Shown here: positions 55,841 through 57,690 of the stretch, piece after piece | How positions within the stretch are numbered: position 1 is the first letter of the stretch | How the letters are laid out: the number at the start of each line of letters is the position of its first letter | Source: Candidatus Schekmanbacteria bacterium | Lineage (GTDB): Bacteria > CSSED10-310 > JACPHN01 | Reading direction: 5' to 3' | Length of the DNA: 64,000 nucleotides | NCBI GenBank assembly: GCA_016188575.1 | Contig: JACPHN010000061.1 | Span: 62,001 to 126,000, forward strand | Made by a program: the position numbers and the translations under genes | Notes under the pieces: model-generated | Seen by the model: the letters and a program-made list of their open reading frames with translations, nothing else | Told to the model about the DNA's origin: nothing | Databases searched by the model: none

Positions 55841-55869
55841 TTGACAACGGCGGCTCTCGGGGGAATAGT
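55841..55869 (+). promoter_or_regulatory. Candidate promoter outside the IscB element
   Basis: TTGACA (55841-55846) and AATAGT (55864-55869) are separated by 17 bp. Transcription would start near 55876, read through the flank (about 55900-55920, the presumed guide position) and into the structured region upstream of iscB. If real, it lets host flanking DNA drive the guide RNA. Confidence 0.45.
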
Positions 55870-55920
55870 GCCGCGTAGATGGAGATCGCCCGCGTGGCCC
55901 GCCCCGAGAAGAAGCGACCG

Positions 55921-56244
55921 TCAACTACCCCGGCCTGAAGGCCGGAGCTTGCTCCGGAGGAAGGTCGCAAGTCGCAAGGCTTGCATTTTGACCAGACCAA
56001 GTTGTTGAGATTGGCAATCGTTGAAACAGATGCGTTGGGCAGAAAGCAGAAGTAACACTCCGAGGTGCTTCCTCAGCCTCGGATACTGCAAGTGCGCGTT
56101 GCAGACAAGTCGTAGGGTCGACACGAAACGGATGTGCACAGAGGGCTGCTGTTCAACAGGGTCGAGGGGAGACCGTCGAGCAAGCCAGCTTGGCGGCGTC
56201 ACAAGCCCTTTACGGGGACCTCTTCGGAGGTATTGGAGGTCACG
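55921..56244 (+). ncRNA. Candidate omega-RNA upstream of iscB
   Basis: The 324 bp before the iscB ATG hold no protein but many hairpins: CCGGCCTGAAGGCCGG (55930-55945) overlapping CCGGAGCTTGCTCCGG (55942-55957); a TCCGAGG/CCTCGGA stem (56059-56083); CTGCAA/TTGCAG (56086-56104); GCCAGCTTGGC (about 56185); and ACCTC-TTCG-GAGGT (56218-56231) just before the ribosome-binding site. In known IscB loci the omega-RNA is encoded directly upstream of the gene and its guide is read from the sequence flanking the element's left end, here probably about 55900-55920. The start of the conserved part (TCAACTACCCCGGCC) is taken as the left end; exact ends are inferred. Confidence 0.6.
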
Positions 56245-57690
56245 ATGGTTTTCGCGCTAGACAAGCGCCAACGGCCGCTGATGCCGTGCACGGAGAAGCG
56301 AGCGCGCAAGCTGCTTGCGGGAGGCCGCGCGCGGGTGCATCGCCTGCATCCCTTCACCATCCGCCTGGTCGATCGCGTCCTCGAGGACAGTGTGGTCGCA
56401 CCGGTGCGCCTGAAACTCGATCCGGGTGCCAAGACGACCGGTGTCGCGATCGTCCGCGACGGAAGAAGTGCCGAGTTTCGAGTGCTGAGCACTGAGAAAG
56501 GCCAAGGCCAAGAGGAAGACCCGCGTCTTTCTTCTTCTTCACTCAGCACTCGGGACTCAGCACTCAGCACTTGCATCGTCCTCCACCTGGCCGAGATCGA
56601 GCATCGCGGTGAAACAGTACGCAAGCACATCGAGCAGCGGAGCAACTATCGGCGGCGCCGGCGATCCGTCAACTTGCGCTATCGAGCTCCGCGGTTCGAC
56701 AACCGACGACGGTGCGAGGGATGGTTGCCACCAAGTCTTCGCTGCCGGCTCGACAACGTGCTCGCTTGGGTCGGCCGCTATCGAAAACTCTGCCCGATCG
56801 GCGCCGTGTCCGTCGAGACCGTGCGGTTCGATACGCAGGCGATGCAGAACCCCGAAATCGCTGGTATCGAGTACCAGCAGGGCGAGCTCGCTGGCTATGA
56901 GCTTCGGGAGCACACATGCTTGCTGGAGAAGTGGGGCCGACATTGTGCCTACTGCGGCGCCGAGAATGTGCCGCTACAAATCGAGCACATCGTGCCCAAG
57001 GCGGGCGGCGGCAGCGACCGCGCGAACAACCTCACCCTGGCGTGCCGGTCGTGCAACGAGCGCAAGGGTCGTCTGGACGTACGGGAGTTTCTTGGGAGCG
57101 ACAGCAATCGACTCGCGCTTGTTCAGGCGAACGCCAAGGCGCCGCTGGCTGCCGCGGCCGCGGTCAATGTTACACGCCGAGTCCTCTGGCAGGCGCTCGA
57201 AAACACGGGGCTGGACCTCGAGGTCAGTAGCGGCGGTCGAACCAAGTGGAATCGCTCGCGGTTCGGCATTCCGAAGACGCATGCCCTCGATGTCGCCTGC
57301 GTAGGGGTGGTCGAACGCGTGGCAGGCTGGCAAAAACCCGTGCTTGCCATGAAGGCCTGTGGCCGCGGCAGTTACCAGCGAACACGTGTCGACAAGTTCG
57401 GCTTCCCGCGCGGCTATTTGATGCGGCAAAAGCGCGTCCACGGTTTTGCAACCGGCGATTTGGTTCGTGCGATAGTGCCACGAGGCAAGAAAGCCGGCAT
57501 GTACGTAGGGCGCGTCGCCGTAAGGGCCTCGGGTAGCTTCAACGTCCAGACAGACGCGGGTACCGTTCAAGGCGTTTCGCACAAACACTGTCGTCTGCTC
57601 CAGCGAGCGGATGGCTACACCTACAGCCAGAGAAAGAGGCGCTTCCTCCACCGGCTGAACCCGGTGGTTTCCGCGCCGGAGATCGGATGA
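56245..57690 (+). CDS. iscB: IscB, RuvC/HNH RNA-guided nuclease
   Basis: A 481-residue IscB. Order: PLMP domain (RPLMPCTEKRARKLLAGGRA, residues 10-29), RuvC-I (LKLDPGAKTTG, Asp 59), Arg-rich bridge helix (NYRRRRRSVNLRYRAPRF, 134-151), RuvC-II (AVSVETVRFDTQ, Glu 191), HNH (CAYCG...QIEHIVPKAGG...CRSC, His 248, Cys 234/237/267/270) and RuvC-III (THALDV, His 346/Asp 349), then a C-terminal domain. All expected nuclease residues are kept. A 33-residue or so segment between RuvC-I and the bridge (about 77-110) is a repeat-derived insertion. Start: ATG 56245 after GGAGGT; an open frame further upstream runs through the omega-RNA and is rejected. No TnpA is near, so it is non-autonomous or domesticated. 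The stop overlaps the gshA start. Confidence 0.92.
   Translation: MVFALDKRQRPLMPCTEKRARKLLAGGRARVHRLHPFTIRLVDRVLEDSVVAPVRLKLDPGAKTTGVAIVRDGRSAEFRVLSTEKGQGQEEDPRLSSSSLSTRDSALSTCIVLHLAEIEHRGETVRKHIEQRSNYRRRRRSVNLRYRAPRFDNRRRCEGWLPPSLRCRLDNVLAWVGRYRKLCPIGAVSVETVRFDTQAMQNPEIAGIEYQQGELAGYELREHTCLLEKWGRHCAYCGAENVPLQIEHIVPKAGGGSDRANNLTLACRSCNERKGRLDVREFLGSDSNRLALVQANAKAPLAAAAAVNVTRRVLWQALENTGLDLEVSSGGRTKWNRSRFGIPKTHALDVACVGVVERVAGWQKPVLAMKACGRGSYQRTRVDKFGFPRGYLMRQKRVHGFATGDLVRAIVPRGKKAGMYVGRVAVRASGSFNVQTDAGTVQGVSHKHCRLLQRADGYTYSQRKRRFLHRLNPVVSAPEIG
56480..56572. repeat. Short palindromic repeat inserted in frame in iscB
   Basis: GAGTGCTGAG (56480-56489) is the inverse of CTCAGCACTC, which occurs at 56542-56551 and again at 56556-56565, so the segment can fold on itself. 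It encodes a Ser-rich stretch (LSTEKGQGQEEDP and SSSSLSTRDSALST) absent from my recollection of other IscB proteins. The length of about 99 bp preserves the frame. Confidence 0.65.
57648..57667 (+). other. Hairpin at the 3' end of iscB, candidate right end of the element
   Basis: CCACCGG (57648-57654) pairs with CCGGTGG (57661-57667) across a 6-base loop inside the last codons of iscB. IS200/IS605-type elements end in subterminal hairpins, so this may mark the right end; if so the element ends within a few tens of bases of the iscB stop, that is, at or inside the gshA start. Confidence 0.4.

What the first reader, a model, noticed from the sequence alone, without database searches (positions are those of the whole stretch)
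55841..57690. IscB locus with a structured omega-RNA candidate and a promoter in the host flank
The protein has every expected part of IscB, the RuvC/HNH family ancestral to Cas9, with all nuclease residues kept (Asp 59, Glu 191, His 248, His 346/Asp 349). The 324 bp upstream contain a run of hairpins and no protein. In known IscB loci this region makes an omega-RNA whose guide comes from the DNA flanking the left end. A TTGACA-N17-AATAGT promoter candidate lies outside the structured region and would transcribe the guide position. No transposase is near, so the unit may be domesticated or mobilised in trans.
Basis: partly seen in the sequence, partly recalled or inferred. Interest (0 to 1): 0.9.

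Follow-up and report, generated by a model that had tools for sequence, protein, structure and literature searches.

The report
IscB element parked at start codon
A mobile element carrying an IscB RNA-guided DNA cutter (a relative of the ancestor of Cas9) sits exactly between a gene's leader and its start codon, and comparison with relatives in many bacteria suggests that this family habitually lands at start codons, where the host's transcript can supply its guide RNA and the host's ATGA supplies its stop codon.

Summary
56245-57690 encodes IscB with all five nuclease residues, and 55920-56177 is its omega-RNA (Rfam HEARO, E 9e-16; 28 of 39 pairs with compensatory changes in 29 relatives). 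The unit is a multicopy mobile element: the same genome has 15 HEARO matches and about a dozen right ends. Its borders are exact: left end GTCAAC at 55920, right end at 57686. It is followed by ATGA, the start codon of a glutamate-cysteine ligase gene, and the TGA of that ATGA is IscB's stop codon. In the same genome 12 of 13 right ends abut an ATGA that opens a gene. In 67 relatives from many phyla the target is always NTGA. It opens an ORF of at least 100 codons in 47/65 (background 30%) and follows a Shine-Dalgarno-like leader in 33/45 (21%). The IscB frame ends in a stop/start overlap in 32-35/67 (other frames 14-17%). Empty sites in Paraburkholderia pyrB show insertion between Shine-Dalgarno and ATG, with no duplication. 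Best reading: a known kind of element (IscB/HEARO) whose motif doubles as a start codon, so the outside guide is transcribed from the host leader and the host gene can be translated by coupling. Coupling and transcription are inferred.

The parts
55841..55869 (+). promoter candidate TTGACA-N17-AATAGT in the host leader; would transcribe the guide, the omega-RNA and iscB
   Evidence: 1 found, 0.2 expected by chance; function not tested
55904..55919 (+). presumed guide (CCGAGAAGAAGCGACC): host leader immediately left of the element; the length of 16 nt is taken from other IscBs
   Evidence: position from the left end fixed; no exact second target found in the genome
55920..57686 (+). the whole IscB element, left end GTCAACTACCCC, right end GGAGATCGG
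   Evidence: homology between copies in the same genome starts at 55920 and ends at the ATGA
55920..56177 (+). omega-RNA scaffold, HEARO family RF02033
   Evidence: (E 9.4e-16), covariation
56245..57690 (+). iscB, RNA-guided endonuclease (RuvC + HNH); its stop codon TGA (57688-57690) lies in the target ATGA
56468..56572 (+). in-frame insert of about 100 bp (33 aa, heptamer-type inverted repeat) in the RuvC-I linker, absent from the intact C5 and C90 copies
   Evidence: low-confidence loop in the model (76-106)
57648..57667 (+). terminal hairpin CCACCGG-CTGAAC-CCGGTGG of the right end, inside the iscB reading frame
   Evidence: read from sequence, conserved in copies
57678..57681 (+). GGAG five bases before the start codon; a possible Shine-Dalgarno carried by the element (such motifs are not enriched over the whole family)
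   Evidence: sequence
57687..57690 (+). target motif ATGA = presumed TAM = start codon of the next gene = source of the iscB stop codon
57687..59090 (+). host gene whose start codon is the target: glutamate-cysteine ligase family (GCS2)

Best explanation
This is one copy of a multicopy IS200/IS605-type (ISC/HEARO) mobile element that encodes an omega-RNA and IscB and has inserted, without target duplication, between the leader of a glutamate-cysteine ligase gene and its start codon ATGA. The motif NTGA next to the right end serves three roles. It is the insertion motif and, by analogy with IsrB, the TAM. Its NTG is the start codon of the host gene. Its TGA is often the stop codon of iscB. Because the guide is host DNA just left of the element, landing co-directionally in a gene leader would let the host promoter make one transcript: guide, omega-RNA, iscB, host gene. 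The guide then matches the leader of the empty allele and the TAM is its start codon, so IscB can cut empty alleles and favour retention or spread. Ribosomes ending iscB at ATGA can restart on the host gene, so the insertion is tolerated. Shown: borders, copies, omega-RNA, start-codon association, stop/start overlap, empty sites in relatives. Inferred: transcription, cutting, coupling, transposition in trans, and absence of target duplication at the window's own site.
For: Copies with common ends and different flanks. HEARO match and covariation. 12 of 13 right ends in the own genome abut an ATGA opening an ORF of 136-616 codons, among them rhomboid, hybrid kinase, M50 and M64 peptidase and PhnD-like genes. 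67 relatives: target ATGA 58, GTGA 6, TTGA 3; ORF>=100 in 47/65 vs 30% (2e-12); Shine-Dalgarno in the left flank 33/45 vs 21% (5e-14); both 28/45 vs 7.4% (6e-21). Viral contigs: ORF>=60 in 23/36 vs 27% (4e-6). The iscB frame ends in an ATGA or TGATG overlap in 32-35/67 vs 14-17% of other frames (p about 5e-7). Empty pyrB sites, leader joined directly to ATGAACACG or its variant, in L214, L216, L219 and L220. In 7 of 18 annotated plasmid loci the annotated start codon is exactly at the junction. IsrB's TAM is NTGA by experiment (PMC9581776). ATGA/TGATG overlaps are known sites of termination-reinitiation (PMC6728339).
Against: No empty allele of the window's own site could be checked (no relative of the same order is held). 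The window's left flank has only a weak Shine-Dalgarno (GAGAAG). Relatives are not independent samples, and right ends were set by eye from the terminal hairpin. About half of iscB frames stop before the junction. Shine-Dalgarno motifs inside the right end are not enriched overall (17/67; 13/38 vs 22%). This copy carries a 33-aa insert and a 2-aa insert and may be less active. No expression data.
Confidence: 0.75

Rival explanations
1. Pure survivorship: the transposase needs only NTGA, lands anywhere, and insertions inside genes are lost; the start-codon bias and the overlap are by-products without function.
For: A four-base motif explains the insertions mechanically. Of 352 ATGA in the window only 45 are intergenic and about 16 genes have a start-like ATGA, so selection alone would raise the start share to roughly 30%.
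Against: Observed share is 12/13 in the own genome and 47/65 in relatives, above that rough 30%. The iscB frame is fitted to the junction far more often than other frames (odds ratio about 5).
Confidence: 0.35
2. Domesticated IscB that acts as a regulator of the neighbouring gene.
For: No linked transposase; nuclease residues kept.
Against: 15 HEARO matches and many partial and full copies at unrelated genes in one genome, with different flanks, mark a mobile family.
Confidence: 0.05
3. A decaying, inactive copy: it has a 33-aa repeat insert in the RuvC linker, a 2-aa insert before the HNH domain and a lower HEARO score than most of its sisters.
For: the insert is a low-confidence loop.
Against: The frame is open over 481 codons and catalytic residues are kept. 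The truncated C5 copy (L078) shares the first 40 bp of the insert, so the insert-bearing version has moved.
Confidence: 0.35

Closest known systems
IscB/HEARO elements (ISC group, IS200/IS605 superfamily; Rfam RF02033, NCBIfam NF040563)
   Same: Protein family, nuclease residues, omega-RNA family and position, left end at HEARO position 1, guide in the left flank
   Different: Nothing in membership. The start-codon placement and the iscB stop taken from the target were not found described in the papers that could be searched
IsrB (DtIsrB), TAM NTGA (PMC9581776)
   Same: Same motif NTGA, same kind of guide RNA, same orientation
   Different: IsrB lacks HNH and nicks; this is a two-nuclease IscB
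TnpB/IS605 elements
   Same: Ends with subterminal hairpins of the single-strand transposition type, RNA-guided nuclease, retention logic
   Different: In TnpB (own knowledge) the guide lies at the right end and the motif at the left; here the order is reversed, so the guide needs transcription from outside the element
Overlapping gene pairs with termination-reinitiation (PMC6728339)
   Same: ATGA and TGATG stop/start overlaps
   Different: Here the overlap is made by insertion of a mobile element

Membership tests
IscB (RNA-guided endonuclease) | PLMP/RRXRR N-terminus, split RuvC with HNH insert, catalytic residues | tested here: met
   fold match to solved IscB
IscB (RNA-guided endonuclease) | omega-RNA directly upstream | tested here: met
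   HEARO E 9.4e-16, 77.3 bits, below the gathering score of 83; several sister copies above it; covariation
IscB (RNA-guided endonuclease) | RNA-guided cleavage next to a TAM | not testable with these tools
   only the flanking motif NTGA is known
IS200/IS605-type (ISC) mobile element | multiple copies with common ends and different flanks | tested here: met
IS200/IS605-type (ISC) mobile element | insertion at a fixed short motif without target duplication | tested here: met
   (empty sites of relatives, not of the window copy)
IS200/IS605-type (ISC) mobile element | Y1 transposase TnpA in the element | tested here: not met
   none near copies; 8 Y1 matches elsewhere in the genome, so it is at best non-autonomous; many known IscB loci also lack TnpA (PMC9755519)
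HEARO RNA | conserved secondary structure with covariation | tested here: met

The most novel reading that the evidence does not exclude
IscB elements as a family aim at start codons: the TAM is the start codon plus A, the guide is the target gene's own leader, the host promoter makes the guide RNA, and iscB is framed to end in the target's ATGA so that the host gene is translated by reinitiation. The target motif would then have been chosen by the need to have an outside guide transcribed while leaving the host gene working.
Probability: 0.5. Interest if true: 0.78.

Novelty: new member of a known kind. Interest (0 to 1): 0.6.

Why it matters
IscB is the group from which Cas9 arose. How its guide, which lies outside the element, gets transcribed, and why hosts tolerate many copies, are open points. 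A motif that coincides with start codons would answer both in one stroke, and predicts that natural IscB guides are mostly ribosome-binding leaders. It also gives a clean rule for finding element ends and guides in any genome.

Tried and rejected
A portable Shine-Dalgarno carried by the right end looked general at first (GGAG-N5-ATG here, GGAGGTAATTG-ATGA in actinobacteria, AAGGAGTTTAG-ATGA in a viral contig), but it is not enriched over the whole family (17/67; 13/38 vs 22%), so it is not claimed. A shared transposase: the right end, reversed, resembles the left end of the genome's own TnpA elements (hairpin followed by GGAAGCG.CTCTT), but their flank is not TCAT; left as a lead. A single-sequence fold was uninformative (z -1.6). 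An automatic hairpin finder recovered only 23 viral right ends (the script stopped with an error after the ORF test, 13/23 vs 28.5%, p 0.005) and was replaced by reading the ends. Weinberg 2009, Kapitonov 2015 and Altae-Tran 2021 are not held. From memory, Weinberg 2009 already noted HEARO ends next to ATGA or GTGA; this could not be checked.

Full report
What was checked. The open reading frame 56245-57690 (481 aa) is IscB: NCBIfam guided_IscB 402 bits, Pfam RRXRR and HNH, best sequence and fold matches to solved IscB, IsrB and Cas9d chains. The structure model is moderate (mean pLDDT 73).

The RNA. At gathering score the window gives no Rfam match, but the region alone gives HEARO, full length, at 77.3 bits and E 9.4e-16 over 55920-56177. 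HEARO is the IscB omega-RNA (PMC9755519). Several sister copies in the same genome score above the threshold, as do most of the 79 related loci scanned. On 29 aligned RNAs, 28 of 39 predicted pairs have compensatory changes. So the structured region is an omega-RNA, though a single-sequence fold would not have shown it (z -1.6).

Borders and copies. The same genome (9.2 Mb, 275 contigs) holds many copies: 34 DNA matches to the region, 15 HEARO matches and 34 protein matches, many of them pieces at contig ends. Lining them up, homology starts at GTCAAC (55920) and ends at ...GGAGATCGG followed by ATGA in nearly all copies. The element is 55920-57686. It is mobile, not domesticated. A second HEARO subfamily with left end GTCACC is present too (C157, C174, C117). 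At least one copy (C5:79625-80565, L078) is an internal deletion derivative.

The target is a start codon. In the window the bases after the right end are ATGAGCTTACGACTG..., the start of a glutamate-cysteine ligase family gene (GCS2). IscB's frame reads through the right-end hairpin and ends at the TGA of that ATGA. In the own genome 12 of 13 readable right ends abut an ATGA that opens an ORF of 136-616 codons; eight of the ten downstream products scanned match known families, from rhomboid to PhnD, one of them only marginally. The exception is C92 (two codons); C150 has ATGA three bases away.

Family-wide test. 80 related loci from many phyla were fetched and right ends were set from the terminal hairpin, not from the ORF downstream. 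For 67 the target is ATGA 58, GTGA 6, TTGA 3. It opens at least 100 codons in 47 of 65, against 30% of 1494 same-tetramer sites in the flanks (p 2e-12). A Shine-Dalgarno-like tetramer precedes the left end at the right distance in 33 of 45, against 21% (p 5e-14). Both hold in 28 of 45, against 7.4% (p 6e-21). A separate set from viral contigs gives at least 60 codons in 23 of 36, against 27% (p 4e-6). Independently annotated plasmids put a start codon exactly at the junction in 7 of 18 distinct loci. The loci are related to one another, so these p-values overstate independence.

Empty sites. Joined flanks of the Paraburkholderia franconis copy (L107) match uninterrupted pyrB leaders in congeners, with the leader running straight into ATGAA.ACG (L214, L216, L219, L220). 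The element therefore entered between the Shine-Dalgarno sequence and the ATG, with no duplication and no loss, and the ATGA is the host's. A different element (72% identical IscB) sits before pyrB in Trinickia too (L122). No relative of the window's host within its order is held, so its own empty site could not be seen.

Stop/start overlap. The IscB frame ends in an ATGA or TGATG overlap with the target start codon in 32-35 of 67 loci, against 14-17% for the other two frames (p about 5e-7). Such overlaps support termination-reinitiation (PMC6728339). Shine-Dalgarno motifs inside the right end occur in some lineages but are not enriched overall.

How it most likely works. IscB's guide is host DNA left of the element, so it must be transcribed from outside. 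A landing site between leader and start codon, in the direction of the gene, puts the guide in a transcribed leader; here a TTGACA-N17-AATAGT candidate lies at 55841-55869. The guide plus ATGA is the sequence expected of the empty allele, and the NTGA motif is the experimentally known TAM of IsrB (PMC9581776). No exact second copy of the guide target exists in the genome (the best others have two mismatches). The element could thus cut empty alleles, and the host gene could be translated by coupling. Transcription, cleavage and coupling are inference.

Which part is uncertain. Selection alone could give part of the bias: in the window 45 of 352 ATGA are intergenic and about 16 genes have a start-like ATGA (rough gene calls), so about 30% of harmless ATGA would be starts; the observed share is higher. 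The window copy has a 33-aa repeat insert in the RuvC linker and a 2-aa insert and may be weakened. The transposase is unknown: 8 Y1 matches lie elsewhere in the genome, none linked to a copy.

Novelty. Membership in IscB/HEARO is clear, so the object is a new member of a known kind. The ATGA/GTGA neighbour motif is, from memory, already in the 2009 HEARO paper, which is not held. Start-codon placement with a borrowed stop and host-driven guide was not found in the papers searchable here.

Noticed in passing
window 56468-56572: About 105 bp in-frame insert with heptamer-type repeats (ACTCAGCACTC...) in the RuvC linker of IscB; related repeats at C208:35846-35950 and C41:772-842 of the same genome, and its first 40 bp in a second IscB copy (C5:80164-80203).
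   Followed up: partly
L258 and L261: IscB elements sit between parA and parB, at the parB start codon, on plasmids of both Trichormus variabilis and Deinococcus; apparently independent insertions at the same gene junction.
   Followed up: no
L107 and L122: Two different IscB elements (72% identical proteins) sit before the start codon of pyrB in Paraburkholderia and Trinickia.
   Followed up: partly
L078 (C5:79625-80565): Internal-deletion derivative of the element that keeps both ends and still abuts an ATGA start codon, like a non-autonomous miniature element.
   Followed up: partly
L063, L064, L065, L068: TnpA elements (TnpB-like reading frame directly downstream in L063 and L065) whose left end resembles the reverse of the IscB right end (hairpin then GGAAGCG.CTCTT), a candidate source of transposase in trans.
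   Followed up: partly
L287: A viral-contig IscB element whose ATGA lies directly before what looks like an intrinsic terminator rather than a gene: a clear exception to the start-codon rule.
   Followed up: no
L071, L077, L081 (C157, C174, C117): A second HEARO subfamily in the same genome with left end GTCACC; the C174 copy has an IscB only 46% identical to the C90 copy's IscB.
   Followed up: no
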